From Scenedesmus sp. ARA3 (Eukaryota > Chlorophyta > Chlorophyceae > Sphaeropleales > Scenedesmaceae), in the NCBI GenBank assembly GCA_004335835.1, contig RWJK01001208.1:186001-250000 (forward strand): 64,000 nucleotides of DNA. The letters are read 5' to 3'. Shown here piece by piece: positions 9,935 to 55,970 of this stretch; the first letter of the stretch is position 1; every line of letters starts with the position of its first letter. The translations under genes were made by a program, and so were the position numbers. The notes below the pieces were generated by a model. It was not told the DNA's origin and ran no database searches. It worked only from the letters and a program-made list of their open reading frames with translations.

Positions 9935-12900
9935 CTACTCGTGGTGCTCGAAGGAGAAGGGCGCGAAGGCGTAGCCGTCACCCCGGTAGAACTTGTTCTG
10001 GAACTCCACCCAGTGCAGGCGCAGCGCGTGCAGGAACGCCGACAGCGACTCCATCACCATCAGCACGCCCATGGTGGCGCAGAAGAACACGAAGAAGCCT
10101 GCGGCCGCAGTAAAGAGCAGCAGCAGCAGCAGCAGTAGCAGCAGATAACACCACGCAGTGTCAATGTGTGCCGCAGCCGACGGCGCCCATGGTGGCGCAA
10201 AAGTCCATGAAGAAGCTTGCGAGGGCAGCAGCAGCAGCCGCAGCAGGCCGTGGTGATGCAGGCTGCCAAGATGTGCACAGTACAAAGATGTGCAGCAGCT
10301 GCAGCAGAGCCGCCCAAATGCCAGGCCGCTGCTTGCTCACAGCAGCAGCCTTCTCACACAGTCACACACTGATCACTCACCGATCATCATCGCCAGCGGG
10401 TTGTTCAGCCCGATCGTCATCATCAGCACGCGGTCGTAGAACACCGCGCTCAGCTGGCTGTGCGCCAGGCTCAGCGCCCACAGCCGCAAATAACTCGCCG
10501 TGTTCGACACCGCGCCCAGCACAAACTCGATCGTGTGGATCATCTGGTGCACCACCACCTCGCCAAAATCGAAGTGGTCGCCGTGGCCGTGGCCGCCGCC
10601 GCCGCCGTGGGAGTTGGCGGCTGCGTGGGAGGAGGAGGCAGCGTTGCCAGCCACCAGGCCGCGGCGCGCCTCCTCGTCCTCGTCACCATCAAAGCCCACC
10701 ATGTCGTACATGCTCCGCTGAAGACAAATGGACACAGGTGTTTGGCGGCAATTACAGTACAGGGATAGCAGGCAGATGCTACGTCAGCAAAGGTCAGGCG
10801 TGAAGCAAGGACAGTGAGCCCACCATGTTGTACAAGCTCCGCTGCACACCACGCAGGTGCCATAGTGGTGACAAGCAGGCATGGACGACAGTTGAAAGTG
10901 AAGGTGAGCTTGTCATTGAGTGTGGTCCCGACGTGTAACACACTACCGAGAAGTGCGGTACGACTGCCTGAACGTAAAACCTCACCACAGACCTCAATGG
11001 CAGCTGCAAAAACGGATACACAATGCTGTACTGCAGCTGCAGCCAGCTCGTGCGCCTCACCTGCCGCTCTGATGCCTCGTGGCGCTTCTTGAGGATGAAG
11101 GGCTTGGGGAACAGCATGAACGGCACAGCGGCAAACGAGATGAGCAGCAGGAACACCTGCGGCAGCACCCAGCAGCAGCGGCAGCGCCACACAGTCAAGC
11201 AGCGCTTTCCCTCCTCTGCATGCAGCGATCAATCACTCCAGTTGCCTGCAACAGCTCCTACCAGCAGCAGTATTTACAGCTAAGAAATCAAGCTGCCCTG
11301 CCCAGCATGTGCATGTCTGCCACCAACCAAGGGTTCACTAAATGGCTGCACCCGGGCACATTTACCTCACTGCTGTGCACGCAACCACCATCCAGCCTTG
11401 TAAAAATAAAACCAAACAGGCCCTGGCGTTCTCACCTGCAGGCCCGCCTGGCCCGGGAAGAGGAAACCGGCCTCGTCCACAGTGCCTGGTGACAGGAACA
11501 TGTAGATCATCACGTGGTACAAGTCGGTCTGCTTGGCCGACAGCCACTTGTACACGATGGCGATGCACAGGTAGCCAAACAGCGAGTTGAGGAAAATCAT
11601 CTGCATATATGAAAGCCGCATAAGCAGGGGGAAGAGGGCAAGGACACGGGTTAATAGTGGCTGGGGTGTGCTGCTAGCGTGCTGCTGGTGGTGACCCCTA
11701 CTGTGCAGGGGTAACTGAGCCTGGTACCTGGGTGTGTAGCCTGAGGGCAGCCAGGCAACCTGAGAGGGAGGTGTCCAACGGCACAGCTGATGATACTGCG
11801 GGCAGTGTGAGAGCCGTGCCATGAGAGCTCCATTAAAGTTGTAACCTGAGCTATAGCCGGGCAGTGATACAACATCACAAACCAGTTCGGCAGGGGACAT
11901 TATTGGCATGAAAACATCAAGGAAGACAAACGGCACATGAATAATACTCGTCACGTTGCATTACCTACTCAGTCGTGCAAGTGTACCGGAGAAGGTGCTG
12001 GTGCGCTCGTAGACCGCCTGCACTGACGCTCTCTGAGTGCACCAGCACCTTCTCCGGTAGGACTGCAACAATATCAAGGGGTTGTACAGAGCAACAAAAG
12101 AGCAAAACTCGTGGCTTGTGAAAACCCTTCCATAACTTGTCATAAAAAGCATGTACGCTCATTCCTCTACAGCAAGGTACCACATGACTGGTACTGTCAC
12201 AACCACCCACAACAAGCAGCACGCCTCGCAACAGTCTCCGTCAACACCCCAATCACCCTGCCCCCCGCCTTATAACAAACAACACATAACAAACCCTCAC
12301 CTGCGGGATGAACTCGCAGATGGTGGACAGCCGGTCCCTGAAGTACAGGTTGTTGAACAGGCTCATCATGATGCCCAGGTTCATGTGCACCACGCCCAGC
12401 AGGATGCTCATCTTCATCTTCATGCTGTTCAGGAAGGGCAGCTCGCTCTTGGTGCCGTGCCACACGGGGTCCACGCCAAAGGGGTAAGGGGGCATGCCCT
12501 TGGGGAAGGCCACCTCGCCGCCATGCTCGGGGCAGGCGCGCATGTCACGTATGGACTCGTCCACAGACCCGTTGATGAAGCACTGCGGGCCGCGGAGCAT
12601 TGCATGATGGTTAGCATAAGCAAGGAAGGAGGGTTGTAGCAGGCGGGGTGTGCTGTGCAGCGACTCTGCGTCGACCGGTGTGACGAGGCGCATGCACGTC
12701 ACCTCCTTGCACAAACACACAAGCGGCTTGATGTGTCCGCACAAGCCGGCATCAATCCTAACTTAAATGATGTCCAGGCTTGTTGCAAAGCCCCTCACCC
12801 GTGCGCGCGTGCCGCCAAAGAGCGTCATGGGCATGGAGAAGAACTCGTTGTAGATGAGCCCCGTGAAGATGGAGAAGGTGGCCATCAGCACGATGCAGTA

Positions 12901-15230: not shown

Positions 15231-15265
<35 letters not shown>

Positions 15266-17291
15266 GATGCTGCAGGCAGCTCCCCGTCAGCTTGCACACT
15301 GGTTGTCACAAACAATTTCATCATGCTGCTTCCTGCTCACCCCCTCAACAGCCGCAAAAGCTGCACTGCCTTATGTGCTGTGCAGCGCTGCTGCGCACCT
15401 GAACAGCAGGCGCTCAAAGCCGTTGAGCTTCTCCTGGGGGATGAGCCCGGCAACAAAGCCCAGGCGGCCTGCGCTGGCTGCAGCAGACTGCAGCAGCACA
15501 ACACACCGGCACCAGCAGCAGGTGCAGGCAGCAGCAGGCGAAGTCATGATGCGTGCCAGAGCAAGAGCACTGTACAACCGCATGCAGAGCGCATACTGAC
15601 AATGACCCCAACTGTTGGCTGCCATAACCGATGCTGCACTGCTGATGCCGCCATTGCTGATGCCACCACTGTTGGTGCTGTCGCTGCTGTTGCTGGAATC
15701 GCCGGCGATGTCATTGCTGATGCCAACACTACTGCTGCTGCTACTAGTTTTGAAGCCGACACTGCTGCCGTTGCTGATGCTTCAACCTGTGCTGCTGCTG
15801 CTGACGATGCCAATGCTGCTCTTGCTGTCACAGCTTACGCTACCACTGCTGCTATGACTGCTGCCACTGCTGTTGCTGGCCCCGCATTACCCCTCACCCG
15901 CAGCGCGCTCTTCAGCAGCGGTGCATCCATGGCCCCAGGCACGCTGTACGCTGCTACCGCTGCTGCCACTGCCGCAGTCAATGCTGCTGCTAGCTACGCC
16001 GACGCTGCCGTCGCTGCCATTGCTGATGCTGTCATCGCTGCTGCTACTACGATTGCTGCCACTGCTGTTGTGCTGCTGCTGCAGCACATCAACAATACGA
16101 CTGCACGCCCCCTCCCCCCTCTCACCGGCAGCGCGCTCTCCAGCAGCGGCGCGTCCATGGCCTCAGGCACGCTGTACGCGCGCTCGCCAAAGCTCTCCGC
16201 TGCCGCCTCTGCCCTGGCGCTGTCAAAGAAGCTGCCGGCCTTCTCCAGCACCAGCTGCAGCTCCATGAGCTCGTTGTAGGAGCGCGCGAGGCGCTCGCTG
16301 TTGCCGTTGGCCTCCAGCATCTCCGCCTCCAGCTCCTCCAGCTTGCCCTGCAGGAAGCAACGATAACAGTCTCAACTTGTTAAAAAAGATTGTGGCCAAC
16401 ACTGATTGTTGCAGATGTACAAAGCGCCGCTGCCTGGACCAGAACGATTGCTTGCTTCACAATGACCAAGCACCAGCTGCAGGGTTACAGCGTGATGGCC
16501 AGCCACCACAACCGCCATGAACTGCTGGCTGCCACAAACTCCAAGCCATCTCCAGCTACCCAAGTGAATGTCACACTAACCATCAACCACGTTTGTCCTT
16601 AATTCTGTGTTCGTGTTTAGGTTCACAGCCGCACCTCCAGCTCATCCATGTCATAGCCCTTGTCCAGCATCGCGCGCATGCCAACTGTCATGCCTGCCTT
16701 CTCCACCTGAGCATGATCAGGGGCAGGAACGTGCTCAGTAACTATATCAGTGAAGGCTAATGTGTTGCTATGGTAATCAGCTGCGATCGTACTTACGCAT
16801 CCAAAGATGCCAGCGGCGCATGGCAGCAGTACAACAGCTGGGGTGCTGCTGAATCGACCAAAACATGTCTTCAGACTGGCAGGCAGCTGCACAAGTGCGG
16901 CTCTGCTGCTTCTAGAGAAAGCAAACTTGCATTATACATCTCGTCCAAAGCGTGGTTGTTGCTCTACAACCCACCCACCTGCTCATGGAAGAACCTGATC
17001 TTCCTGGCCATCTCATCGCAACGCTTCACCTACAGGCAAGCAGGCCGGCTCAGAACGAGCTCTGCTTATTCCTTTACTTACAAAAGCTTCGCCTGCAGGT
17101 ACCTGATTAGCGTATGTCCGCTGAAAGGCGCTTTTAACACTGTTGAGGTCCTTGAACTGCAGCAGGCCCACGTCTCCCAGTGCTGCGATAGTATCGTGTG
17201 CTGACTCCGCCGGAATCATCAGCTGCACCAGCTGCATCTCCTCTGAGCGCCATAGCTCTATGTTGTCGAAGCCAAAGTTGAAAATCCCCAT
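9935..17291 (-). CDS. V-type proton ATPase subunit a (V0 membrane sector), 845 aa
   Basis: Sixteen exons: 17103-17291, 16979-17029, 16635-16706, 16126-16347, 15399-15487, 14965-15100, 14474-14656, 14021-14173, 13629-13712, 13255-13351, 12799-13016, 12301-12582, 11436-11600, 11061-11156, 10381-10717, 9935-10098; 2538 bases, every phase matches. The N-terminal cytosolic half has [23 protein letters not shown] and [20 protein letters not shown]. The membrane half has [34 protein letters not shown] and [12 protein letters not shown]. The proton-path arginine is present in [16 protein letters not shown], and a second conserved Arg in [14 protein letters not shown]. Length is typical. Subunit a forms the two proton half-channels and the peripheral stator of the vacuolar/endomembrane pump. 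A Gly/His-rich loop ([14 protein letters not shown]) before the last helices is a lineage-specific insert. Start chosen at [14 protein letters not shown]; a Met ten codons upstream is less likely. Introns contain exon-edge copies listed separately. Confidence 0.95.
10182..10222 (-). repeat. Intronic copy of the 5' edge of V-ATPase subunit a exon 16
   Basis: Read on the minus strand this matches the start of the last exon: a Phe-Phe pair followed by CATMG, as in the real [12 protein letters not shown]. It lies 84 bp upstream (in gene direction) of the true acceptor at 10098. It is diverged and would not maintain the conserved helix. Confidence 0.7.
10817..10844 (-). repeat. Intronic copy of the 5' edge of V-ATPase subunit a exon 15
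   Basis: On the minus strand this reads as an acceptor (gtgtgcag) followed by codons for RSLYNMVG, against RSMYDMVG at the real exon start (acceptor at 10718). It keeps a plausible 3' splice site, but the frame stops soon after. Confidence 0.75.
11984..12059. repeat. Perfect 21-bp inverted repeat in a V-ATPase subunit a intron
   Basis: Arm 11984-12004 is exactly complementary to 12039-12059. Pairing continues for about five more positions into the loop, leaving a terminal loop of roughly 24 nt. It lies in the intron between exons 12 and 13. Size and near-perfect stem resemble a small-RNA precursor or a tiny foldback element. Neither is proven. Confidence 0.75.
15893..15950 (-). repeat. Intronic copy of the 3' edge of V-ATPase subunit a exon 4
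   Basis: About 58 bp match 16121-16180, which covers the exon 4 3' end and its donor, with roughly seven differences. On the minus strand it encodes [15 protein letters not shown] followed by a gtgagg donor; the real exon reads [15 protein letters not shown]. It sits in the intron just downstream of exon 4. The DNA between the two copies is a degenerate GCT/GCC-rich stretch. Confidence 0.8.
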
Positions 17292-18546: not shown

Positions 18547-18698
18547 ATGGCTCCACAGAAGATCAAGGTTGCAAACCCCGTGGTGGACCTGGATGGCGAT
18601 GAGATGACCAGGTGAGCCTTGTAACAGCTTTATCGCAGTGCATGGTGTACTCTACAAGCCTGGGCGTGCATGTGCATGCTTGCTCAGTTACTGGACTG

Positions 18699-18749
<51 letters not shown>

Positions 18750-20924
18750 GTCATTTGGGACATGATTAAGGAGAAGGTGTGCAGAGCTACAGCAGCAACA
18801 TAAAATTACAATACATGCGGCACAGCTGTGCCACATGTGCGCAGCAGCTGCGCGTTGCTTGGCCCTTGCAGCCGGGCACTGTAGCATGGCCAACAGCCTT
18901 TACCAGCAGCCCCGCCAGCAGAGTTGAGGCAGTTTAGATAACGCAGCATTAAGCAATCATAGCAGTCAGCGGCGTGAGGAAGCTTCGCATGCTGTGTCAA
19001 GTCTGTTGGTTGCTGCCTAACACGGTGAAGATGCCAGCATCCGTGCCTTACGCATGCATGCACCCAGCATGCACCCAGCCACTTTCCTGGTTTGTAGGGT
19101 GTACTGCACTCTGCCGGGCCTGCCGTTGTCATTGCAACTGTGGCAGCTGTGCGGGCCCTGCCATACATGCCTATTGCTAAGCAGGCCAGCACATGAGCAC
19201 CTTCTTGCGTCCAGTGCCGCGCCGCCTTGCGCTGCTGCTGGCGACCATACTGCTGCTGGCAACCGCACTGCAACTGCTGCTGCTGCTGCTGCCGCAGCTG
19301 GTGCTGCCGTACCTGGACCTTGAGATCAAGTACTTTGACCTGGGCCTGCCCAGCAGGGACGCCACAGACGACCAGATCACCATCGACGCAGCAGAGGCCA
19401 TTAAGGTGCGGCAGGCACCTCATCATTTACGTACCAGTTCATTGGATGCGGCAGACGCCCAACCGCCCCACCGTTGTTCTGCACTGCTGGCAGCTGCATG
19501 TTCTGCGACATTTGTGTTATTCAGTTGGCAGTTAGTTGTGGTACATATGGGTTGTCTGCAAGGGTCGTGCATTGGGACTTCAGCGCAAGAGGAACGGTAC
19601 AAGGAGCTCCACCAGAGCAGCGGCGCCAGCCATCTCCGGCTGCCTCACACGCACTGAGGTGTGCGCTGAAATCCGCACACACATACCCATGAAGCACCTC
19701 ACTCACACCTTTCAACCACTTATTGTTTATCCTTGCGTCCCGCAGAAGTACAACGTAGGCATCAAGTGCGCCACCATCACCCCTGATGAGGCGCGCGTGG
19801 AGGAGTTTGGGCTCAAGAAGATGTGGAAGTCCCCCAACGGCACCATCCGTAACATCCTCAACGGCACAGTCTTCCGCGAGCCCATTGTCGTGTCCAACAT
19901 CCCACGCCTGGTGCCCGGCTGGACCAAGCCCATCGTGGTCGGCAGGTGTGTTATTTTGGATGTTATTGTGTTACTTTTGTTGGTGATGCCAAAGGGATGC
20001 TGTTGTGCCTGGTTGGACCAAGCTCATTGTGGTCGGCAGGCGCGGTGTCATGGCTGTATTGTTGTATTATTTTTGATTGTTATTTCTTGTGCGTTGGTCG
20101 CACTGTCACGGGACAGGAACCAGCTACATGTGCACAGGACAGATGTAGTCATTTCACGTGCTGCTAGCGCAAGCATCTTGCCTGCGGCTGTGGACCTGTG
20201 CATGTAGTCCACGCAGCTCCAGCAGCAACCGTCTGTCCACAAACTGTTGGGCATGCTTGCTTGCGTGTCACCTTTCCTTCACATGCCTCTTGTGCTGCTG
20301 CTGCTGCTGCTGCTGGGCTGCAGGCACGCGTTTGGTGACCAGTACAAAGCCACTGACGTGCGCATCCCCGGCCCTGGCAAGCTGCGCATGATCTACGAGC
20401 CAGCAGACGGCTCCGCAGCACAGGAGTGAGTGGCACGGCCAGCTGCAGCTTGAAGGTGTCAGCAGCTGCTGCAGCAGCAGGAACAGCAATGAATGAGGGG
20501 GTGCAAGTGCTGGGCTGCAAGTGCCAGAGTTGACCATGCTGCAACAGCCCTTGAAGCACCGGGACGTCACGTCTTGTCTGTGAACTTATTGCAAACACGC
20601 ACTGCCTGCACATGTATGTTGCCGTCTGCGTTTCATCAAGCCTTGTTACAAACTTGTCTTGTCCTAGCGTGGCCATGGGCATGCACAATTGGCAGCTTTT
20701 CTGTTGCAAACAAAAACCATGTCACTAACGCTGTCACTAACATGTCACTTTTTGCAGCTACGAGATCTTCACCTTTGAGGGCGCTGGCGTGGCCATGGGC
20801 ATGTACAACACGGACGAGTCAATCCGCGGCTTTGCCAAGTCCTGCTTTGAGTACGCACTGCAGAAGGGCTGGCCGCTGTACCTGAGCACCAAGAACACCA
20901 TCCTCAAGGCATACGATGGCCGGT

Positions 20925-20960
<36 letters not shown>

Positions 20961-22123
20961 TGTGTATGCATGGTTGAATTGAGTGGCGCTGCAGAAGGGC
21001 TGGCCGCTGTACCTGAGCACCAAGAACACCATCCTCAAGGCATACGACGGCCGGTGAGCAGCAGCAGCAGCAGCAGCAGGTAGGGCATGCCAAGGCTGAC
21101 TCACACTGCGAAGTCAGGACTGGCAGTTTGTTCATCCACTGCTACACGTGGTCATGCGTATGTTGATTCTGCAGTGGTTCGTTTGCAGCCCAACCGCACG
21201 ACGCCACCCGAACCCTGGCACTGCTGTGCTGCTGTGTAAATGTTTTTGCCCCATGCAGCTTCCTGATGATCTTTGCTGAGATCTACGAGGCGGAGTACAA
21301 GGGCAAGTACGAGGCAGCAGGCATCTGGTACGAGCACAGGCTCATCGACGACATGGTGGCACAGGTGCGGGGCGAGGGGTGTGATGGGGCGTTAGGGCTG
21401 GTGGGTTAGGGGTGCAACTGCGCAGCGCGCTGCTGCCGTGCCCAGCATGCATCAAGACTGCAGCTTTTTCAGATAGAAATGTTGCAAGAATGGGTCTTCA
21501 TGCTTGTTTCTCATGTTCGCTCACTGTGCAGGGGCTCGCTTCTGCAATCGCTGCCATTCTAATGACTCAACACCAATGCTGTTTTTGCAATGTTCCCTTA
21601 CCGCAGGCGCTCAAGTCCAGCGGCGGCTTTGTGTGGGCGTGCAAGAACTACGATGGCGACGTGCAGTCCGACATCGTGGCGCAGGGCTACGGCAGCCTGG
21701 GGCTGATGACCAGCGTGCTGGTCACACCTGATGGCCAGACCGTGGAGGCTGAGGCAGCACACGGTGGGTTTAGGGTTCTGGGGTGGCGAGTTTTGGGTTG
21801 TGGGGTTTGGGGTTGAGGGCTGTATGGCAGCCTGGGGCTGATGACCAGCGTGCTGGTGACCCCTGACGGGCAGACCGTGGAGGCTGAGGCAGCACACGGT
21901 AGGTTGCCACGCTACAGTGTGAACGTACATGCAATCGTGCTTAGTGCTGCTGGTAAGCAGCCTGTGCTGGATTGAATTAATCAAACAAATCCATATGTTT
22001 GCCCGGTGCTGCTGCTGCCATATGTTGGCGCAATGGTTGCGGCTGTGCTGGCTGCAGCTTGCGCGTGCGGCACGATGGCACATGAGCACATTTTCACCAG
22101 CTCTGAACTTCACACCTGTCAAC

Positions 22124-25838: not shown

Positions 25839-27508
25839 AGACCTGCCTGCGCTGCAGGCTGTGGGGCAGGACCTGCGCGCTGACGCTGGCCTGGTGGCAG
25901 CCAGTGTGGCCATCTACATGCTCACAGTCGGCATTGGCAGCCTGTTCTGGGGGCCTATGGTGAGCAAAACCAGATGCTGAAGCAGCTGTGGAGGCCCTAT
26001 AAATTTAGCTGGAGTTTCTTATCTGTGGCAGCAGTTTGATGTCGTTGGTGCGGTGATGTTGAGCAGCCTGTCTGGGGGCCCATGGTGAAGGGTATGATGC
26101 TGCAGCAGCGATGTGTTCCGGATGGCTGTAGTGACCATGCTTTTACAGCAGTCAGTGTGGCCATCTACATGCCCACAGTCGGCCTCGGCAGCTTGTTCTG
26201 TCTAGGGTTCCATGGTGAGGGGTAGGTGCAAGCTATGGCTGTTGCGCTGCAGCAGCGTTGTGTATGAACGAATGTGTATGCACATGCACACGGTGTCAGG
26301 CGCTGCAGTGATTACCCCTGCTGCCATGCGACTAACAGCAAGCAGCACCGCCTGCCTTGCTCAACTGATCGTTTACAACTTCTGTGCATTGCAGGCTGAC
26401 CGCTTTGGGCGGCGCATCACATATGCTGTGGGCTCAGTGCTGTTTCTGGGGACCAGTGTGGGCTGCATCTTTGCACCTACAATTGGCGTGCTGGTGGCCT
26501 TCAGAGCCCTGCAGGGCCTGGCAGGTGCGACGGGCAGTGCTGTTGCTGTGAACGGCAGTTAATGTTGTGTATAGGCGCCTCCTAGCAGCGGAAATTTGGG
26601 TTGTGTTTGCGCGCCGGGCTGTTAAGGTGGCGCGTGGTTGCAGTTGATTGTTGGTGTCGCAGCTCGTGCCTATGGTTGTCGCAGCTGGGGTTCAATGTGG
26701 GCTCTGTGCTGTTCCTGGGCACCAGCTTGGGCTGCATCTTCGCACCCACCATTGGCGTGTTGGTGGCCTTCAGGGCCCTGCAGGGCCTGGCAGGTGCGGC
26801 GGGCAGTGATGTTGGAATTGTGTGCGTTGCGCCTCCTAGCAGCAGAAATTTGGGTTGTGTTTGCGCGCCGGGCTGTTAAGGTGGGGCGTGGTTGCAGTTG
26901 CTTGTTGGTGTCGCAGCTCGTGCCTATGGTTGTGGCATCTGGGTTTGCTGTGGGCTCTGTGCTGTTCCTGGGCACCAGTTTGGGCTGCATCTTTGCGCCC
27001 ACGATTGGTGTGCTGGTGGCCTTCAGGGCCCTGCAGGGCCTGGCAGGTGCGGCGGGGCCGTGAAGAGCAGCTATGCTATGAGATTTGGTTGATGCTGTGT
27101 GCATTGCGCCTCCCAGCAGTGGAAATCTAGAATGTGTTTGCGCGCCAGTGCTGTGCTTGAACTTGGATGAGACTGTGTGCACGCCGCCTCCTAGCAGCAT
27201 GATATAGGGGATTAGATGCGTGCTGTTGGTGTTCAGGGGGCATGCTTGCAATCGCTTGCTGGTGCAGCAGCTGGTGTGTGTTGTGTGTCAGCGCAGCTGG
27301 TGTGTGTTGTGTGTCAGCGCAGCTGGTGTGTGTTGTGTGTCGGCTGCAGGACAGTGCCCGAAGCAGTAGCCAGATTGGTAGGGGCCGCCAGACGTGCATT
27401 GCTGCCCATGTGCTGACTATGCTATCACTGTACACGTGGCGGCTAGCTGCATGAAGCTGTGCTGAGCAACATGATGACGACTTCATTGCTGGTGCTCCTG
27501 CTGCTGCT

Positions 27509-37894: not shown

Positions 37895-40800
37895 GGAGGT
37901 GGCTGGCTGTGCAGATGCCTCGGCTGCTGCTGCTGTTGCCGCTGCTGCTGCTGCATCCATTGTAGAGGAAGGAATTGCCGCCAGCCCTTGCTGCTGCAGC
38001 TGCTGCTGCTGCTCAAAGGGTCGAGCCACATCATCCCCAACTTCCTCAATGCTGAAGCCTGCTGCTCCCGCTGTCAATCTTGACAGCAGCACGCTCACTG
38101 CACCGCCGCCGTCGCGGCCGCGCACCCACGCACACAGCGCAGCAGCAGCAGGGTCTGCATCTGCCTCTGCCAGCAGCAGCAACTCCTCATCGACTAGCCG
38201 CCGCTGCAGCACACCACCAGTAGCACTCGCTGCTGCTGCTGCCGGTGTGGCTGCTGCTGCTGCTGCTGAGTCCAGCAGGCGAGCCACTAGAAGGGCCAGC
38301 TGGGGGTCTGCTGCTTCCCTTGCCAGCACTGACACAGCATCCCAGCCGCTGCCGGCAAGCACGAAGAAGGCTGCAGCAGCAGCAGCAGCAGTGACGGGCG
38401 CAGTGGAAACAGGTCAGCTATGCAAGTACAAAAAACAGGCAGGATTACTGCAGTATGCCTACATGTGCAGAGGTGCAGTTGCTGGCACAACTAGACCAGC
38501 ATTCACACAACAGGAGAGCAGGTGCCCTGTCCTAGCAGGCCCTACCCAGGCTCGAACTGGGGCTACTGGATTCAGAGTCCAGTGTGATCACCACTACACT
38601 ATAGAGCCAACTCCAATCTGCACCCAGCCAGGTTCGAACTGACGGCCTTCCGTGTGTTGGACAGATGTGATGACCAACTACACCATGAGTGCTGGTGCTG
38701 CTGCTGCTGCTGCTGCAGATGTTCTGCATCTGCGACTGGGGATCGAGCAGACACACAGCACAACTGTGCCTGCGGCCAGGCTGTAGCGGTAGGGTGATGG
38801 CTTGCCCACCCCTGTAACCGGCCTCTCTCTGTAGCGGTGCTGCACCAGTGACGCATCACACGCCACAGCACAGCACACCACACCACAACCACACTCGACC
38901 AGCAGCACATCAACCCCCTCCACCCCACCCCACCTGCGGCCAGGCTGTAGCGGCGCTTCCCCAGCAGGCAGAAGACGCACACTGCAGCACAGCACACCAC
39001 AGCACAGCCACACCACAGCCGCACCGCACATCATTTCCGAGGCCCTCAGCGCACCTGCGGCCAGGCTGTAGCGGTGCTGGCCCAGCAGGTGCAAGGCGCG
39101 CACTGCAGCACAGCACAGCACACCACAGCCACACCACAGCCGTGCAGCACACGCAGCTAGCACACATGCGACCAGGCTGTATCGGTGCTGAAGCAGCAGG
39201 TACAAGACGCACGAATCACACCACAGCCACACTGCAGTCGTGGTAATACAAACCAGCCAGCGCGCGCACCTGCCGCCAGGCTGTAGCGGTGCTGCCCCAG
39301 CAGGTGGAAGGCGTTCTTGCTGGCGGCCGCCCTGCCCTCAGCACTACTGAAGTCACGCGCCAAAAAGTCCGCCACCTGCGCCACAGCACAGCACGGCACA
39401 GCACAGCACAGCATAGCAGGCTTGGTGTAAACAGGCTCACCGGGAAGTCTGCCAAATGCGGCGTAGCACAGGAGGGGCCAGGCCAGCACAGCACAGGCCC
39501 GCACATCACATCACGGCAAATGCCAGCACAGCAAGAGAGACGCCGTTGAAGGATGGCAGAGGCTCACTGGTGTTGGAAGCTTTGATGGTGCAAAGCAGGG
39601 TACAAGCCAGCAGAGCATAGTGCAGCACGGCGCAGTTCAGAACAGTGCAGCACGGCGCAGTTCAGAACAGCACGGCACAGCAGGCTGAAATGTGGTGCAG
39701 CGCGGGGAGCGAGCAGCAGGTGGCGCCTGTGGCGCCATCGGTTCAGCAGAATCTGACATCAGCAACACCGCTTCTGTTGAAACGGACCACCAGACCACCA
39801 TCTCTACCAGCAGCAGCAGCAGCGGCAACAGCAGCAGCAGTGCCGCACCTTCTTGTTGCCGCTGCTCCTGAACAGCCCCTGCAGCACCGCCTTCTTCCCT
39901 AGCGCCGCATACAGCAGCGCAGGCTCGTGCGCGTCCTTTGTTGCTGCGAACTGTGCTTTTGCCAGCGCATCAGCGGTGGCTCGCAGCGCTGACTGCTGCG
40001 TGAGCCAGAAGCCCGCGCCCAGGGCGCGCAGCTTGGACCAGGTGAGGGCTGCAGGCAGACACACAAGAAAGGGGAAGATGAGCATGATGAGTCAGCACAG
40101 CACATCGCTACACAGTTTGGCAGGGCGTGTAGCTTGGGCCAGGTCAGCGCTGCAGGCGGTGAAAAAAGGAGGACGAAGGGCAGGAAGAGCATGTTAGGGT
40201 GGGCACTAGGTCAGCACGGCAGCGCTGACTGCTGCGTGAGCCAGAAGCCCGCGCCCAGGGCGCGCAGCTTGGGCCAGGTGAGGGCTGCAAGCAGATCCAG
40301 AGAGGGAGAAAAGAGAGTGAGAGGGAGGCAGCAGAGGTGCGGCCATACGGTCAACGCTAGAGCCCAAAGCGCGCAGCTTGAGCCAGGTGAGGGCTGCAGG
40401 CAGATCGATCGAGAGAATGAGAAAAGAGAGTGAGAGAGCGGCAGCAGAGTTGCGGCCATACGGTCAACGCTAGGGCCCAGGGCACGCAGCTTGGGCCAGA
40501 TGAGGGCTGCAGGCGGTGAAAAAAAGAACAGAGTGCAGAAAGAGAGGCACGATAATGCAGCCAGAAGCTCAGCAGTGCATATGACCGAAGAAGTGGTGGA
40601 GTGCGCTGGCAGGCTGGCAGGCTGGCATGTCAGCCCTGCAGGTGGCGTTGTTCCTTGTGCATGATAGGCTTGCAGACTGTCCAGCCGAGGCGAGGCAAGG
40701 GCCTGACTCAGCTAAGTTCTGGTCAAGATAGACAAAGAGATAGACATGCATGTTGGGATGCAGCACACTACCAGCAAGTTACCAGAAGACCGATGCACAG

Positions 40801-41017: not shown

Positions 41018-43285
41018 ATGTGTTGCTCTACTGCATCAGGCACCAGAGGCAGCAGCGTATCAAGCAGCGCTCCCTGGCTGCTGCTGGCTGCTGCCCACAA
41101 GCAATGCAGCGGCGTCACTCCAGGCAGGAGCCCCACAAAAGTGGCCCAGCTGCTGCAGCTAGCAGCCCGCGCTGCAGCAGCAGCCTCAGAAGCAGCTGAT
41201 GCACCCCCGATGTCTTTCAGCGAAGAGAAAGATAGCATCGACGCAATCGACATGCTGCTGCGCATCGCCACAGTTGCGAGACCCCTACTGCTGCTGCTGC
41301 GGCGGCTGCCAGATGCGCTGCTGCTCAGGCCCCTAGACACCAGAAGCCCAGCTGCACCACCAGCCTGCAGCTGCTGCAGCCGGCCCGGCGACAGCGGCGG
41401 CGTGGCCCTGCTGCCGCTGCTGCTGCCCCGGCCATCTGCCGCAGCAGCTGCTGCAGCTGCAGCAGCAGATGATGGCGGAACGGGAGCAGCAGGATAGTGT
41501 GCAAGCAGCGCCGCGCCCCTGCTGCTACCTGCCGCTGCGCTGCGGCTAACACTGACCGGTTGGAAGAGCCGTATCACAGCAGCAGCAAAGCGCTTGTCGT
41601 GCTCGTCCCTTGCTGTCACTCCTGCGGCAGCTGTTGCTGCGCCGCTGCTGCCAGCTGCGGCTGCTGCTGCTAGCTGCAGCAGCGCTAGCCGCGCATTGAC
41701 TGCAAAAAGCCGGCCAGCTGCATCCAGCTGCTGAAACAGCACACTACCATAAGCAGGATCATTTGCCGCAAGCAATGACAGCGGTACTGCCTTTGTACCG
41801 CCTGTGCCAGCCAAAGTACCGCTGCTAGAAGCAGCAGAAAAGCGTCTACTGCTGAGACCTAACCCGCCACTCTCTGCAGACCCCAGACCACCGCCAGATG
41901 CCCAGGTGGCTGCCAGGGCTGCTGCACTGGCCGGGCCGCCGGCACCTGTTATAAAGCTGTTATAACTGTTACTTCCGGCACCATCCTCGTCATCTGCTGC
42001 CTCTCCATCTTCACCCATGAAGGTGCGGGTGCACAGTGCAGCAGCAATGTGGCAGAGCCGCTGTGCTTGCTGAACACTCAATCCCAACTGACTCAGCAAT
42101 TGCACATCCCCAGCTTGGCCTGCCTGCGCTTCCGCTGCTGCTGCTGCTGCCGCATCATTCGCGCTGCTGTCCTGCCGGGCATATCTGCTGCTGCTGCTGC
42201 CGCCCCTGTAGCCGTCTTTGTCTGCTTCAGCAGCTCCAGCTGCACCCAGCAGCCTCGCAAAATAAGCAGTAGACGCGGCAGCATCCTTCGTTGCATCGCT
42301 GCTGCTGCTGCTGCTCTTGGTGGCAGCTATGCCTAGCAGCCGATGCAGCTCCCGGACCTCTGCACGGCTCAACAGCTGCTTCTTGGCTGCTGCTGCTGCT
42401 GCTGCTACTCCACCGCCTTGCCCTGCTGCTGCTGCTGCTGCAGGCAGCTTTTTGGCTGGGGGTGGTGGCTTTGGGAAGACTGCAGTGGCCTTTGCAAGCA
42501 TGCGAGGGTCGCAGTTATGCACTTGCGATGCATCGAATGTCAGTGCAGCTGCTGCTGTTGTAACAGCAGCTCCTGCTGGCCCTGCTGTTGCTGCTGCTGT
42601 TGGCTCTTGCGGAGCCTGGTGGTCTGGCTCCTGCTGCTGCTGCTGCTGCTGCTGTTGGGTATGCTGCATATCCTGCACTGCTGCTGCTGCTGCGGGAGCA
42701 GGTGTATCCCAGTCATCATCGTCAGCACCGGCACCAAACCCAAAACCACCAAAGGCTGACATGTCAAGCATGCCTGTTTCCATGGCAGACACTGCAGCTG
42801 CTGGTGGAGGTACCGCTGCTCCTGCTGCTGCTGCTGCTGTGCTTGTTGGCTCTGCTGCAGTAACCTGCTGCTGCTGCTGCTGTTGCGGCTCCTGTTGCGG
42901 CTCCGTCTGCTGGCTCGCTGCTGGTGTGTCCCAATCATCATCGTCACCAGCTCCAGCACCAAACCCAAAGCCGCCAAATGCTGACATATCCAGCATGCCA
43001 GTGTCCATTGCAGACACCGCAGCAGCTGCTGGTGGAGGTACCACTGCTGCTGCTGTACTTGTTGGCTCGGCTGCAGTAACCTGCAGCTGCTGCTGCTGCT
43101 GCTGCTGTTGTTGCGGCTGCTGTTGCGGCTCGGTCTGCTGGCTCGCTGCTGGTGTGTCCCAATCATTGTCATCACCAGCTCCAGCACCAAACCCGAAGCC
43201 GCCAAAAGCTGACATATCCAGCATGCCAGTGTCCATGGCAGACATAGCACTGGGAGCCTGAGATGCTGCTGCTGGCTGTGCAGTT

Positions 43286-43324
<39 letters not shown>

Positions 43325-44723
43325 GCTGGAGCTGCGTCCCAATCATCATCATCAGCAGCAGCGCCACCAAACCCAGCAAAGTCCCCAAATGCAGCCATGT
43401 CAAGCATGCCAGTATCCAGAGCACCAGCACCACCAGCTGCTGCTGCTGCCGATGATGATGATGATGCAGCAGCAGCAGCAGGGGCTGCTAGTTTGCTGCG
43501 CCCTTGAGCACCTGGCTCGGGTGTGCCAGGCGCCAAGGTGCTGCTGCTGCTGCCGCCAGCATCACCTGCACCAGCAGCAGCCTGCTGCTGCTGCTGCTGC
43601 TGCTGGCCATCAGGTGCAGGCATCGCTGACGGCTGCTGCCAGCCAGCAGCAGCAGCGGCTGATGCATTGGCCGGGAGGCTGTAGCCGAGTGCTGCTGCCA
43701 CTACTGCATCCCTGAATGCGCAGCAGCGCTGCACTGCTGCAGACACAGCCAAGCCGCACTCGCCAGCAGCTAGCAACACTTCTAGGGGCACTACAGCAGA
43801 CACTGACCCAGCGCTGCTGCTGCTGCTGCTGCTGCTGCCACCATCAACTGCTGCTGCTGATACGTTCGCCAGGGCTGATGTGCCACCATCAGCTGCTGCT
43901 GCTGCTGCTGCTGCTGTATCTACCACTGCAATGTCCTCATCTATATCCTCTCCCTTAGCCCTTCGCAAGGCAGCCAGCAGGCAGCGCAGCACACCTGCAG
44001 CAGCCTCATTCCTGCCCTGGCCCAGCAGCAAGCTGAGAACCTCTGGGTGATACAGAGGCAGGCTGCTGCTGCCTGCTGCTGCTGCCAGCGCTGCATGTGT
44101 GGCCAGTGCCTGATGGGGGTGCGACAGCAGGGCACCGGCAGCTGGCCCGCCAGGCATGTGCAGCAAGCCTGGCGGCTGCCAGCTGTCGACTGAGGTTTGA
44201 CCAGCTGATGTTTGACCGAGGTTTGACCAGGGCTGCTGGCTGCTCAGGACCATGCTGCTGGTGCTGCTATTGACAACGTTGGCATCTACACCTGCTGGCC
44301 TTGCTGCTGCCGCTGCTGCTGGCTGTTCAGCTGCAGCGCCTGCTGCTGCTGGTGCTGCTGCTGCCAGGTTTGACAGCAGCAGCAGCTGGCTGCCTGTGAC
44401 GAGCAGCGGCAGGCCCAGCTGTGTTGCTGCTATGAAGTTCACACTGAGGCCTGCCTGGTAGCAGGCGATGGTGTTCCACTGGCCACTGCAGCGCAAACAG
44501 ATACAACCCGCAAGTAGCAGCCCTCAGTGCGGGAGATATCACACCTTGCCTGGGAAGTACTGTGTTGTCCTTTGTGTTGTCCTTCAGTGCAAATGCATGC
44601 GCTGCAGCAGTCTGGCTGAAAGCACTCACATCCCTCCCGAGCAACCCACACTGCTTTTTATGTTCTTACGTACAGCTAGCCCGCCACTCTTTAATCCTGT
44701 GATGCAACAGGATGGAAAGCGTT

Positions 44724-46251: not shown

Positions 46252-46290
<39 letters not shown>

Positions 46291-46461
46291 AGGTATTTTC
46301 CGCCTGAGAGCGTCACCAAGCACACGTCAACGCCCTCCCTGCCATGCACAGCCAGCAGCAGCGGCAGCCCTGGCGCCTGCGCTGCTGCAGCAGCAGCGGC
46401 TGCAGCTGCGCCGCCAAACGTAACCCAGCAGCAGCTCCTACACTGCCGCCAGCTTGACGGC

Positions 46462-46511
<50 letters not shown>

Positions 46512-46983
46512 CAGGTACATGGGCAGCTGCTGCACTGGTGCCAGGCCCCACAGAGCCACGCTGCCCCTGGTGCTGACTGTTGCTGCTACATTGGCAGCAG
46601 TATGCACGCTGACCTGCACAGGCAGCAGACGCAGGCAGCATCACATAATGCACGTCATGCTACTGGTGGAACTTGGTGCACTGCGAACTGCTCTCTCTGT
46701 CAACACCTGCCTGACAATCATGGTCAGCTAGTGCACTAATCCAACAATGTATACATGTCCAACAACACAAAGAACAGCAAAAAAATGTCGCTGCTTTCTA
46801 AGTAAATAGCTCACCTGCAGCCACTCCTCTGCCTGCCCCGTATGCAGCCGCCGGTGCTTCAAGCCCACCGAAATGGCCGAGGCTGGTGCGCCAGCCTCGT
46901 TATAACCTGTCAGTGGCGTCACTTGAAAACAGCGGGCCTCACTCAACCCCAGCCTGTTAGCAGCAGCAAACCCGGCAGCATCA

Positions 46984-47022
<39 letters not shown>

Positions 47023-50813: not shown

Positions 50814-53800
50814 TCAATACACATCAAAAGTAGTGTGCAGAGCTTCCTTTGCAAGCGCCATGCCCTTCATATCAGGCAGCGCATGGCCTGCCAATCCCTT
50901 CTGCTCTGCACCCTGCTGCTGCTGCTGCTGCTGCTGCTGCATTGCCTGCCAGTCCTTGCGCTCTGCAGCGCTGCCGTCATGCTCCTGCTGCTGCACGCCG
51001 CTGCTTGCACTTCCTCCGCTCACAGGAAGCCCCAGCTGCTGCTGCTGCTGCAGCCGCTGTTGCTGCTCCTGCTGCTCAATGACCCCGCTGCGCCTGCCTA
51101 TCACCGCTGCTTCCAACAGTTCTGGATCAGCAGCAAGGGCAAGGTACACACTCTCCCAGTACTCCGCATCACGCAGCATAGGGGGCTGCAGCAGGAGCGG
51201 GTGCGCCGTACGGCCTCCGCTCAAGCCAGCATAGCCACCACCATCACTGCTGCTGTAGCTGCTGCTGCTGCTGCGCTCATTCACATCACTGTCTGCTGCT
51301 GCTGCTGCTGCCGGCCCTGCTGGATGGCTGCCACACCAGCGCGAGGCAGCGGCAGCAGCAGCAGCCAGCTCACACGGCAGCGGCAGCCGCCACCCCTGGT
51401 ACTGCAGCAGCTGCTGCTGCCGCTGCCGCTGCTGCCGCCGCAGCCGCCGCACCTCGCGCTGCTGCTGCCAGTTGCGCTGCCAATACTCCAGCTGCCGCTG
51501 ACTCTGCTCACCAGCCTGCCCAGCACCTGCTGCTGCTGCTGCCGCTTGCTGCTGCTGCTGCTCGGCCTCTGCCTGCTGCTGCTGCTGTGCGGCAGCAGCG
51601 GCGTCTGCCTGTGCCTGCTGATCAGCGTGCTGCTGCATCTGTGTTGACAGCCGCAGCGTAGACTTGAGCCATGCAACACAAGCTGAAAAGAACAGCAGCG
51701 CCATAGCTGAGAGCGCTGCATTGATACTGCCTGCAGCCAGCAGCAGCACCTGCACCAGCCATCCTGCACCCGACTTTGCCACCTGCCCTCCTATCAAGTC
51801 TACTACTGCCTTGCTCGCCTTGCTCTCAGCAGGCTGCATTGTTTTGTACACCATCTCCTTAGTCGGCTGGAACAAGCTACTGCGGCAAGCTCCAGCAGCA
51901 ACACATGTGGCAAATCCTGCACTCAAGCCCAGGCCTGACAGCATCTCCGATGCAGCTTGCCCACCAGATGCGGCCGCAGCTGCAGCTGCAGCTGCACTCC
52001 AGCTGCTGCTGCTTGCTGCTGCGGGCCCTGCTGCCATGCCGGCAGCTGCTGCAGCTGCTGCTGCTGCTGCTGCTTGTGCCAGCAGGCAGCAGCCGAAGAA
52101 GGAGGAGCCCAGCAGCAGCATGATGCTGGGGCTGATCAGGGCAGCTCCCGACCATCCCAGGTGCTGCACAGCATTTCACAGTGAACGCACACACAGCACA
52201 ATACAAGCATGTTGTCAGGCACTGCCGGCAAGCAGTCAGCACCTGGTGTTGCAGCAACGTCCGAGTGTAGTGCTTGCCTTTGACATCAACCAAGCAACCA
52301 GCTGTTGCTGCAAGCTGTACACCACGGTCCATAGTGTATCACCCCAACCTCAGCACGGTCAGAACATGTGGACTGCAACACTCCCCAACGCACCTTGAAT
52401 ATCAGCTTCGAGGCTGTCATCAGCGCCAGTGCGCCCATGCCCACCAATCAGATGCTGTTCACCAGCTTCAAACTCACCTTGAATATGAGCTTTGAGGTTG
52501 CCATCAGGGCCAGTGTGCCCATGCCCACTGCGCTCTGCAGGTCTGCCAGCGCGCAGCAGTAGGCCGCTGAGTCGGCAGCAGCCAGCCGCAGCTGCAACCG
52601 CAGGCAGAGCATTACACACCGCAGGGCAGCGCACCACAAGCAGTGAGCAGGGACCATGCACCACAAAAGCACAAAAGTAAGCAACAGCCCTGGTTGCATT
52701 GATGCATGCTGGTGTGCTAGCTTGTCTGGCTGATGATAGCTGCGGACAAAAAACAGTGCCATTGACACCCTTCTTGCTGGCAGATACAGAGCCCTGATCC
52801 CATGCAGTTGTTGCGTGCTGGCGTGCTGGCTTGTCCAGCTGACACCTGCCAACCCAGTGACTGTCAGCACTCCTCAAGTTGCCTGCAACAAGTGCACACA
52901 CACAACTTGCAGGAAATTGGGACACCAGTGGGTTTGACACCAAAAAAGAGCCAAGCAGCAGACAGTGCAATGTATGACCTGTCACAGCCTGCTGTGCCGT
53001 GCAGGAACCCACCTGTGCCTTGAAAGCATACTCAAACAGCCGCAGTGCAATGCCAAAGCTCACGACCCAGGTGGTGAGCTCAGCAGCTTTAGGGTTCCTG
53101 CCAAGCACTGTCCAAGCCTCCTGCCAGGACGCCTTGGGTTTACTGCCCTTGGGTTTGGGCTGAGACCCTGCTGCCTCTGCTGCTGGGCTGCCGCTGCGGG
53201 GCGAGCTGCTGCTGCTGCTGTTGCTGTTGCTGGCCAACAGGCTGCCTGGACTGGAGCTCCTGCTGCTGCTGGCACTGCTGATAGGCTGCAGCGGCGGTGG
53301 CCGCCGCGGCTGCTGCGCTCTACTGTGCCTGTGGTGTGCATGCATAATGCCGCCACCAGCACTCGTAATGAAAGCAGGTGCTGCTGCAAGGGCTGGCTTC
53401 TGCTGCGGCCGCGCACCAGCAGCAGCTGCGGATTCAGCCACAGCAGCCTCTAGCTCTCCAGCATTTGGCTGCTGCTGCTGCTGCTGCTGTTGCTGCTGCT
53501 CTGTGCGCGGCGCGCTGCTGTTCTGCTTGTCCCTGCTGTGGTCGCTGCTGAGCCTGCCTGGCTTCAGGTAGCGCCTGTTGATGAGCGCCTTGCAGGCAAA
53601 CATGACTCCAGCCATCAGCAGCATGCACAGCACCAGCACCTGCAGCGCAGGACACAGGGCAAACATGCGGCACAAGCACGCGCACGTCTGGCACTTCGTC
53701 ACGCAGCTCTGTCACACCATTGCCATCTACAGTCAAACTTGGTCAATCGGTCGAACATCACCTTCTGTCACCTGCAGCACCGCGTCCATGCCATCCGGCC

Positions 53801-55970
53801 CTGGTTTGCCGCCAACTGCTCGGGTGTACTGCTTTGATCAACCTGCCGCTGCCACACACCTTGAGTGAGCCAGAAAACATGCATACTTTCGCGCGAGAAC
53901 CGCATGTTCCCTGTACTCCGCGCAGGCTGCTCTTGTGCACTACCGCCTCTTCACGGTCAGCACGGTCAAACTTTAACCCCCCCCCCACCCCACCTGCAGC
54001 ACCACACCCATGCCATCTGGCCCTGGCTTGCCGCCCACTGCGCGGTGCACCGCCTTTATGAACTTGCCGCTGCCCACCAGCCCCAGATTGGCCAGCAGCC
54101 CCAGCTGCGGGTACAGCACCTTGGCCTCCTCCATGGTGCACACCTCATCAGCAACAGTCCTGCAAGCAGCAATAGTTGGCAATAAGTGATGCCAACAGCA
54201 GTAACAGCAGCATCAAAGACAGCAGCCCTAGCTGCGGGTACAGCACCTTGGCTTCCGCCTTGGTGCACACCTCATCAGCAACAGTCCTGCAAGCAGGAAC
54301 ACATGTAGATTTCACACGCCAACAGCAATAGTAGCAGCATCGCCAAGGCGCCTACGACTCCTGCAAGCAGGCCGTCTGTTGTGGGTAATAAGTTGTGCTG
54401 TCTTCTGGCTGCCTTGCATGTCAACATCGTATTCCGAATCCACCTGTGCAGTCATGTTCAGTGGACTACGCCTGTTGCAGCAGCTGCTTGCTCACCAGAA
54501 CGCAAGCGTGATCATCACAGGCCCCCACAGGTCACCCGCCACATAAAACAGCGAGAACAGCCACTGCTGCAGCGCTGCCACTAGTCCTGCAAGCCCCTGG
54601 GGCAGCACAGACAGCCATGACAGCCACTGGCCAGTGCAGCTGTGCAGCGCTGGGGCCAGCGGGTACAGCACGAAGGCAAACAGTGCATAGAAGGCCAGGA
54701 AGGGCGCTGCTGTGGCAAAGTACAGGTGCTGCGGGGGCATGTGAGGCACCTGCAAGACAAGCGAGCAGCAACACCATATGTTACAGGCCATGTGTCGCAC
54801 AAGGAGTCAGCGTTGAACCCGCCGCTGCTGCTGCCTACAGCTGTGGTGTGAATGGCACAGTGCCACATCACCATGGTGCTGCAGGAGTGTCAAGTCTTAA
54901 GCCGGCCGATCCACAAAAGCAGCCGCAGGTTGCCTTGTGCTCAAGCACTTGGCTTGATAAACCCCACCTTGCTCCATCTCCGTGCTCTGGCGCTGTTTGC
55001 TGCTGTCATGCAAGCCCGCTGCTTTCCTGCAAGCAGTGGCCGCTGCACGCCGCTCACCAGAGTGAACCTGTAGAAGTTGAAGTAAGCCAGTGAGGCAGGC
55101 AGTGTGCCCAGTGTGGTGAGGAAGGGCAGCGCATCAGCACCCATCTCAATCACCACTATGCCATCCTTCAGGCTCTGCAGCTGCAGGTGCATACAAGGAC
55201 AGTTGAGCAGTTGAGTATTCAGCAAGGCCAGCAGAAACAGTGCAACGCAAGGGCAGCAGCAGCTGCTGGCTTGTTGGTCGGAGATGGAGATTGCTGGCAG
55301 GTGCTGGCAGGCTGCCGGTGTGCAGAGGCAGCTGCTTGCAGGAGGATACATGCGCTGCAGTTGCTGTTGCTCATCCACTGTGACCACAGCTAGTCAAAGC
55401 CGCAAGTGAGTTTTGCCTCCCAATACCTGCTGCAGCTTGCAACTGCTTGCTGCAGAGCTAGCACGAACCGATGCTGCAATAGTGCCTGCTCACCATAGTG
55501 AAGATGAAGGTGGCTGAAAAGAACAGCACCGACAGCGGTATAGCCTTGCGCCATGCCGAGCCAAACAGCATACGCAGCGGGTTGAGTTTACGCCAAGCAC
55601 TCTTTGGTCTACCGCCTGCGCTGAGTTCTGTTGTGCTGCTGCTTGCAGTTGGCACTGCTGCTGGCGGTTGCTGCTGCGTGCTTCTACTGTGCTGCGAGTC
55701 CCCATGCCACCTCCTGCTAGCTGAGGCAGCAACACAGCCAGATCCTTTGAGCCGTGCAAACAGAGCTGGACCGAGCGCCGGATGCCATGGATCATGTCGA
55801 GAGCAGCACCTGCTGCTGCTACTGCTGTTGAGCTGACGTGCAGCCGAGCCCACCGGCAGGAAGCATGTACTAAAGCGCAAACTTAGGTTTGGGAACTGTT
55901 TCGCTTGATGAAAGCTGTTTGTTGCCAGCAATCCACGGATGGCGGGCACATTCGGCCAAGACAAGGACAT
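50814..55970 (-). CDS. Plastid-type ATP/ADP carrier (TLC/NTT family), about 1034 aa
   Basis: Seven exons: 55494-55970, 55058-55174, 54496-54749, 53994-54159, 53013-53639, 52478-52591, 50814-52163; 3105 bases, phases consistent. The family exchanges cytosolic ATP for plastid ADP across the inner envelope. A Ser/Arg/Ala-rich leader of about 100 residues looks like a chloroplast transit peptide. TLC hallmarks follow: WRKAIPLSVLFFSATFIFTM, EMGADALPFLTTLGTLPASL, LFYVAGDLWGPVMITLAFW, EVCTMEEAKVLYPQLGLLAN and SLFQPTKEMVYKTMQPAESK. The protein is much longer than usual (about 600 aa): a Ser/Gln-rich insert of about 150 residues (exon 5) and a Gln-rich C-terminal extension of about 250 residues account for the excess. 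The inserts are CAG-driven, so transport activity could be retained. Exons 4 and 6 have partial intronic copies. Confidence 0.88.
52389..52443 (-). repeat. Intronic copy of the 3' edge of ATP/ADP carrier exon 6
   Basis: On the minus strand it reads VGMGALALMTASLKLIFK-like codons, against VGMGTLALMATSKLIFK in the exon at 52478-52591, followed by a gtgcgt donor. It is about 35 bp downstream of the real donor. Confidence 0.8.
53765..53850 (-). repeat. Intronic copy of the 3' edge of ATP/ADP carrier exon 4
   Basis: It matches the end of exon 53994-54159 (SGKFIKAVHRAVGGKPGPDG region), with indels that break the frame. It lies in the intron downstream of exon 4, about 140 bp past the donor. Confidence 0.8.
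54222..54289 (-). repeat. Intronic copy of the 5' edge of ATP/ADP carrier exon 4
   Basis: It reads TVADEVCTKAEAKVLYPQLG on the minus strand, against TVADEVCTMEEAKVLYPQLG in the exon, and keeps the acceptor (cttgcag). It is about 60 bp upstream of the real acceptor, so exon 4 has edge copies on both flanks. Confidence 0.88.

What the first reader, a model, noticed from the sequence alone, without database searches (positions are those of the whole stretch)
10182..54289. Intronic 'echoes' of exon edges in every large gene of the window
The V-ATPase, isocitrate dehydrogenase, DHA1 transporter, Rav1/DmX-like and ATP/ADP carrier genes all have introns holding direct copies of the exon edge that borders that same intron. 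I count at least 14 parent edges or copy groups. Copies range from near-identical (20987-21053) to decayed (27948-27988). Both 3' edges (with donor) and 5' edges (with acceptor) are copied, always in direct orientation and usually within 60-250 bp. Whole exons are not copied. This implies a recurrent local tandem duplication that crosses exon-intron borders, perhaps by slippage or template switching at splice-site triplets. It would seed alternative splice sites and new introns.
Basis: partly seen in the sequence, partly recalled or inferred. Interest (0 to 1): 0.9.

Follow-up and report, generated by a model that had tools for sequence, protein, structure and literature searches.

The report
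Exon-edge echoes from ~120-bp duplications
In this green-alga genome short stretches of DNA are copied side by side in steps of about 120 bases, and when a step crosses the end of an exon a partial copy of that exon is left in the intron and can stay exon-like for long.

Summary
Five genes of the window contain 15 exon edges with direct, partial copies in the adjoining intron; none of the 15 copies a whole exon. A survey of 254 kb, made without annotation, found 81 clusters of local direct duplication and 11 inverted pairs, 9 of them palindromic. Spacing is quantised: 62 of 81 clusters lie at 60-164 bp, 13 at 180-269, none at 270-737; exact-word matches peak near 124 bp, with a second peak at 210-269. 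An intron-only duplication and in-frame coding repeats occur too, so splice sites are not a required target. Edges dominate because a ~120-bp step in intron-dense genes often crosses one and, I infer, because exon-derived copies stay recognisable longer. In one Rav1-type array the intronic echoes agree with each other in 86% of the exon-derived block but 69% of the spacer, which suggests exchange with the working exon. CAG/CTG is almost the only microsatellite. Lagging-strand flap duplication is a plausible, untested cause. Assembly error is unlikely but not excluded without reads.

The parts
10066..10228 (-). V-ATPase a subunit, last exon (9935-10098): 5' edge 10066-10110 and echo 10184-10228 upstream, offset 118; echo acceptor AG reads AA
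10693..10849 (-). V-ATPase exon 10381-10717: 5' edge and short echo 10817-10849, offset 124
15890..16179 (-). V-ATPase exon 16126-16347: 3' edge with donor 16118-16179, echo 15890-15951, offset 228; the spacer has a direct match to its surroundings
19911..20083 (+). IDH exon 4 (19746-19945) 3' edge and echo 20005-20040, offset 94; echo donor is GC
20855..21075 (+). IDH exon 6 (20758-20922) 3' edge and echo 20986-21056, offset 131, 97% identical, donor intact
21688..21905 (+). IDH exon 8 (21607-21763) 3' edge and echo 21823-21897, offset 135; all 5 exonic differences in the aligned block synonymous
25897..26219 (+). MFS transporter exon 25841-25959: 3' edge, echoes 26063-26088 and 26148-26219
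26395..27276 (+). MFS exon 26395-26524 and tandem copies E1 (26696-26808) and E2 (26946-27056), offsets 269 and 253, with similar spacers and further decayed intronic copies to 27276
27852..27987 (+). MFS exon 27772-27888: decayed 3' edge echo 27948-27987; the block ends at the junction
34833..35959 (-). Rav1-type gene: 5' edge of exon 34669-34911 plus eight echoes in the upstream intron, units 118-133 bp
38764..39313 (-). Rav1-type gene: 3' edge of exon 39270-39375 plus four echoes
39983..40517 (-). Rav1-type gene: 5' edge of exon 39849-40052 plus echoes a-d; echo b (40219-40295) is 97% identical to the parent while its upstream flank matches echo c
42698..43445 (-). Rav1-type coding exon: in-frame tandem repeats at offsets 222, 228 and 180 bp
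52387..52528 (-). ATP/ADP carrier exon 52479-52593: 3' edge 52471-52528 and echo 52387-52444, offset 84
53769..54074 (-). ATP/ADP carrier exon 53994-54160: 3' edge and echo 53769-53853, offset 222, with frameshifting gaps
54093..54341 (-). same exon, 5' edge and echo 54220-54341, offset 127, near-complete tandem copy

Best explanation
The echoes are the exon-overlapping subset of a process that copies DNA locally, in direct orientation, with a preferred step of about 120 bp (most 60-164) and a second class near 230 bp. It acts in introns and exons alike. Copies wholly inside exons survive only in frame. Copies that cross one exon edge are tolerated, because the outer edge still splices and the extra copy falls in the intron. 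After birth the intronic parts diverge quickly. In at least one array the exon-derived block is kept exon-like, most simply by repeated exchange (gene conversion or unequal crossing-over) with the functional edge, so that the visible block shrinks to the exon plus its splice consensus. Shown: step size, orientation, occurrence in many sampled loci, occurrence away from edges, better preservation of block than spacer in one eight-echo array. Inferred: in-frame filtering as a general rule, exchange, and lagging-strand replication (Okazaki flaps) as the source of the step.
For: Direct 183 pairs in 81 clusters against 11 inverted pairs, 9 of them palindromic. Smallest offset per cluster: 62 of 81 at 60-164 bp, 13 at 180-269, 0 at 270-737, 6 at 738-1346. 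Exact 11-mer match starts, over 267 kb that include the LHC locus: 92 at 120-134 bp against a baseline of 5.3 per 15-bp bin, 10 at 180-194, 46 and 43 at 210-239, 23 at 345-359; inverted matches show no such ladder, only isolated bins of 20 at 165-179 and 405-419. Loci fetched later for other reasons: FEN1 gene offsets 107, 110, 115, 131 and 219; LHC locus 88, 105, 133 plus four at 636-801; XPG-like locus none. Of 24 pairs with identity 88% or more and spacer 40 bp or more, the spacer has a direct match nearby, as a decayed middle copy would give, in 7 of 10 at offsets 212-251 and 1 of 14 at shorter ones. Polarised intron-only event in LHC paralog B. Echo-echo identity in the Rav1 array: block 0.861 with 1.8 gap positions, spacer 0.688 with 13.2, block higher in 26 of 28 pairs. 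Among-echo changes synonymous 16 of 26 (p=4e-4) and 6 of 6 (p=1e-3) in two arrays. In 16 hand-picked 3' echoes flank identity is 0.43 at +7..+20 (control 0.28-0.29) and 0.29 at +21..+40 (control 0.25). Mismatches between copies are 3-periodic outside the window too (585 of 1239 in the best phase, shuffled 558, p=0.001).
Against: The synonymous bias is not uniform: in RAV39 5 of 21 changes are synonymous, as neutrality predicts, and in RAV40 5 of 8 (p=0.07). Outside the window third-position differences are 91 of 163 in 27 pairs, not clearly above one half (p=0.08), so neutral echo plus synonymous parent nearly suffices there. Most young pairs (21 of 25 at 90% identity or more) have a spacer of 40 bp or more, usually without a match nearby at short offsets, so simple tandem duplication does not explain them at birth. 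Edges stay in excess after allowing for loss of exon-internal copies. Very short spacings (15-44 bp) are raised as well in the word count (41 and 37 per bin). FEN1 is present with XPG domains, so no loss of flap processing is visible. No reads, second assembly or related alga could be compared. Exon calls outside the window come from my own small gene finder.
Confidence: 0.6

Rival explanations
1. Plain tandem duplication of random segments with no later exchange: the parent exon is constrained, the echo decays neutrally, and edges stand out only because the exon half stays recognisable.
For: Outside the window codon-position differences (43, 29, 91; 27 pairs) are close to neutral echo plus synonymous parent. 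LHC-B, L004 8478 and L009 2116 look like complete tandem copies with the intron part similar too.
Against: Block against spacer in the Rav1 array (0.86 against 0.69 between echoes) and loss of flank similarity within about 20 bp in pairs whose exon part is often 88-97% identical (hand-picked).
Confidence: 0.25
2. Copies are made in one step with an internal spacer, as in the flap-derived 'alternative duplications' of yeast lacking RAD27/FEN1; the ~120-bp step reflects Okazaki fragment size and the CAG/CTG expansions have the same source.
For: Spacer of 40 bp or more in 21 of 25 pairs of 90% identity or more, median 82. CAG/CTG runs 225 against at most 3 of any other motif. Duplications with an internal sequence between the units are described for 3'-flap maturation (PMC13202174, Introduction read in full).
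Against: FEN1 and other XPG-family genes are present. The inverted centre of FEN1-linked small inverted triplications (PMC13334657, passages) is not seen: 1 of 24 spacers has an inverted match, at a repeat-rich locus. It does not by itself place block ends at splice sites. The Okazaki fragment length of this alga is unknown.
Confidence: 0.3
3. The copies are functional alternative exon ends under selection.
For: Synonymous bias in some echoes (IDH exon 8: 5 of 5) and mostly intact GT/AG in the hand-picked set.
Against: Offsets without preference for multiples of three; frameshifting gaps and in-frame stops; the eight Rav1 5' echoes have no consensus-like donor directly after the block, by my reading; one echo repeats the end of a coding sequence with its stop codon (L015 90-163, my reading).
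Confidence: 0.05
4. Assembly or haplotype artefact.
For: Scaffold with an N gap (window 56679-56728); the peak is near common short-read lengths (recalled); no reads could be examined.
Against: Copies differ by 1-30% with unique spacers, one array has nine units, and two paralogs differ by a clean duplication. An assembler does not invent diverged sequence.
Confidence: 0.05

Closest known systems
[quoted passage not shown] review PMC3443670, passages read)
   Same: Tandem duplication that crosses an intron-exon boundary and inherits splice signals.
   Different: Here the copy lies inside an existing intron and no new intron is seen; it recurs in many genes with a preferred step.
[quoted passage not shown] paper not held, recalled)
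   Same: Within-gene duplication as a source of gene-structure change.
   Different: As I recall it, no size ladder and no partial exon copies confined to introns.
FEN1/RAD27 flap duplications and 3'-flap 'alternative duplications' (PMC13202174, Introduction and passages)
   Same: Direct duplications, some with an internal sequence between the units; a link of flap processing to CAG/CTG instability is recalled.
   Different: Mutant or stress state in yeast and human cells; here an evolved genome with a FEN1 gene.
Small inverted triplications (PMC13334657, passages read)
   Same: Flanking direct duplications with a median of 148 bp around a centre; breakpoints aligned with Okazaki fragment termini and nucleosomes.
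   Different: No inverted centre found here.
Minisatellite arrays with higher-order repeats (recalled)
   Same: Head-to-tail units, decayed middle copies, array turnover.
   Different: Similar unit size at unrelated loci, with the working exon edge as terminal unit.

Membership tests
[quoted passage not shown]
[quoted passage not shown]
   IDH and V-ATPase proteins are intact with the echoes left inside existing introns; transcripts not available, other genes not tested
Introner or other transposable element | related copies at many unrelated loci | tested here: inconclusive
   the one DNA query made (IDH exon 6) found only its own locus and echo in the genome; other echoes not queried
Tandem-repeat (minisatellite) array | head-to-tail copies without spacer | tested here: inconclusive
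   25 of 75 clusters with offset up to 300 have a spacer under 20 bp, the other 50 do not
FEN1-deficiency duplication | loss of FEN1 function | tested here: inconclusive
   a gene with XPG_N and XPG_I domains is present; its model is a draft and activity cannot be tested
FEN1-deficiency duplication | direct duplication on the scale of an Okazaki fragment | tested here: inconclusive
   step near 120 bp; the fragment length of this alga is unknown
Small inverted triplication | inverted fragment between direct copies | tested here: not met
   1 of 24 spacers has an inverted match
Gene conversion between exon and echo | block more similar than spacer between intronic echoes | tested here: met
   one array; in the MFS array E1-E2 block 91/97 against spacer 116/143; other arrays not compared this way
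Gene conversion between exon and echo | conversion tracts seen in populations or relatives | not testable with these tools
   no population data or related genome

The most novel reading that the evidence does not exclude
This lineage has a standing duplication process with a quantum of about 124 bp set by lagging-strand replication, which also makes CAG/CTG its almost only microsatellite. It fills introns with exon-edge copies that exchange sequence with the working exon, so that introns act as a nearby reservoir of exon ends from which synonymous and occasionally new coding variants can be written back.
Probability: 0.2. Interest if true: 0.85.

Novelty: new variant of a known kind. Interest (0 to 1): 0.6.

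Why it matters
A natural genome with a quantised short-duplication process would let one measure, without mutants, how flap or fork errors duplicate DNA and how splice-site copies feed gene-structure change. It also warns annotators: a gene finder can take echoes for exons, as mine did for the echoes of IDH exons 6 and 8 (exon 8 again) and, it seems, in FEN1, whose predicted protein repeats short peptides.

Tried and rejected
Splice-site-targeted mechanism: not needed as the prime cause, because an intron-only duplication and coding repeats share the step. Functional echoes: rejected on offsets, frameshifts and missing donors. Selection on all echoes: the pooled window count (36, 31, 110 by codon position) looked decisive, but array copies share parental changes; the sample outside the window is compatible with near-neutral decay. 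Inverted-centre model: not supported (one search used a masking that let masked letters match, so it was repeated). Closeness in the MFS array (E1-E2 nearest in block, 91/97; P-E1 nearest in spacer, 145/155 with 18 gap positions) is suggestive only. FEN1 or MutS loss: genes present. Species not settled: best IDH match 90% to Scenedesmus sp. PABB004. Searches counted edges by list length or by flags entered by hand; one search recomputes this and is the one used. In the Pfam test three of eight window pieces had no match.
Full report
Setting. The window lies in contig C869 (positions 186001-250000) of an 87.3-Mb assembly in 1567 contigs. G+C is 58%. The IDH protein matches green algae best, 90% to Scenedesmus sp. 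PABB004 (best 120 of 7996 hits listed), so I take it to be a chlorophyte near Scenedesmus. Pfam supports V-ATPase subunit a, ATP/ADP transporter and Rav1 C-terminal domain (the last by 0.3 bits) and, below its cut-off, MFS; three of the eight window pieces given had no match.

Gene models. IDH (10 exons, 414 aa) and V-ATPase (16 exons, 845 aa plus stop) splice cleanly with GT-AG at all 24 introns. The MFS, Rav1 and carrier models are partial, built from open exons. Outside the window I used a small hidden-Markov gene finder trained on these genes; it takes some echoes for exons.

Observation. Self-BLAST found the echoes without annotation. Fifteen parent edges in five genes were examined copy by copy. 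Of the 17 direct clusters inside the five gene spans, 14 straddle an edge in their visible block, against 6.4 expected by unit length (p=6e-5), or 8.4 if exon-internal duplications are assumed purged (p=0.004). The excess is real but moderate, since a random 120-bp unit crosses a single edge in 13-44% of placements, by gene.

Genome sample. I sampled 254 kb: the window, 16 loci from other contigs and five more stretches of C869. Pairs more than 1.5 kb apart, or more than 40% CAG-type, were dropped. The sample holds 183 direct pairs in 81 clusters and 11 inverted pairs, 9 of them palindromic. Sixteen of 21 loci outside the window have direct pairs; five have none.

The ladder. Smallest offsets per cluster are 60-164 bp in 62 of 81, 180-269 in 13, 270-737 in none and 738-1346 in 6. 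A separate count of exact 11-mer matches, over 267 kb that include the LHC locus, gives the same picture: a peak at 120-134, a trough at 165-209, a second peak at 210-269, a weak third near 345-389, and no such ladder for inverted matches; spacings of 15-44 bp are raised too. Loci fetched after for other reasons agree: the FEN1 locus has offsets 107, 110, 115, 131 and 219; the LHC locus has 88, 105 and 133, besides four at 636-801; the XPG-like locus has none. Of 24 young pairs with spacers of 40 bp or more, the spacer has a direct match nearby in 7 of 10 at offsets 212-251 and in 1 of 14 at shorter offsets. So the second class is largely two steps with a decayed middle copy.

Not confined to splice sites. 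Two light-harvesting paralogs are nearly identical in exons and visibly diverged in introns; one carries a clean 104-105 bp tandem duplication inside an intron that the other lacks. A Rav1 coding exon carries repeats at 222, 228 and 180 bp, all multiples of three. Only two pairs whose whole interval is predicted exonic passed the filter and both offsets are multiples of three; the 95 other pairs split 29, 34 and 32 over the three residues.

What happens to the copies. In 16 hand-picked 3' echoes (of 17; one failed to locate) flank identity falls from 0.84 at +1..+6 to 0.43 at +7..+20 and 0.29 at +21..+40, against controls of 0.72, 0.28-0.29 and 0.25. Eight hand-picked 5' echoes give 0.83, then 0.56 at +7..+12, 0.30 at +13..+20 and some residual similarity at +41..+60 (0.35 against 0.25). 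In the nine-unit Rav1 array the eight echoes, all intronic, agree with each other in 86.1% of the exon-derived block and 68.8% of the spacer. Their block changes are 16 synonymous of 26, and 6 of 6 between the two MFS echoes, against about 0.3 expected; RAV39 shows 5 of 21 and RAV40 5 of 8. In RAV40 echo b matches the parent in 68 of 71 aligned positions while its upstream flank matches echo c (39 of 44). I read this as exchange with the working edge; it is not proven. Outside the window 27 echo pairs show differences of 43, 29 and 91 by codon position, which neutral decay plus synonymous change in the parent nearly explains.

Source. Most young copies carry a spacer of unknown origin (21 of 25 pairs of at least 90% identity have 40 bp or more, median of all 25 is 82). 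Only 1 of 24 spacers tested has an inverted match nearby. CAG/CTG is almost the only microsatellite: 225 runs, at most 3 of any other motif. Flap-derived duplications with an internal sequence are described in yeast and human cells (PMC13202174: Introduction and passages), and FEN1-linked inverted triplications have flanks with a median of 148 bp (PMC13334657: passages). This makes a lagging-strand source attractive. A FEN1 gene is present here, so a milder change or another trigger would be needed. That yeast rad27 mutants show short repeat-flanked duplications and triplet expansion is recalled, not read.

Literature. Nine searches, read as listings, showed no paper whose title or abstract start describes exon-edge echoes with a fixed step. 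The library holds open-licence papers only, so this is weak evidence of novelty.

Noticed in passing
267 kb sample, all loci held: CAG/CTG runs of six or more units occur 225 times (841 per Mb); no other motif exceeds 3 runs (thresholds differ by unit length).
   Followed up: partly
predicted introns of the sample: Runs of six or more units are CTG in the gene sense 35 times and CAG once; 25 of 35 CTG runs end within 30 nt of the predicted acceptor, as if standing in for the pyrimidine tract.
   Followed up: no
window 11984-12059 and 50411-50595: Two long imperfect palindromes, about 79-82% self-complementary; nature unknown.
   Followed up: no
window 56679-56728: Run of N inside an ATC repeat, so the assembly has unresolved repeats.
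   Followed up: no
window 2798-3872: Larger direct repeats at offsets near 740 bp, outside the ladder.
   Followed up: no
L015 7331-7689: Tandem array of an 82-bp unit, about four copies, 89-92% identical, no gene predicted.
   Followed up: no
L024-L025 (C1476): Tandem light-harvesting genes: A and B nearly identical in exons with diverged introns; A and C match at exons (90-95%) with no BLAST match in the intron between.
   Followed up: partly
L026 (C1127): FEN1 gene, itself with five local direct pairs.
   Followed up: partly
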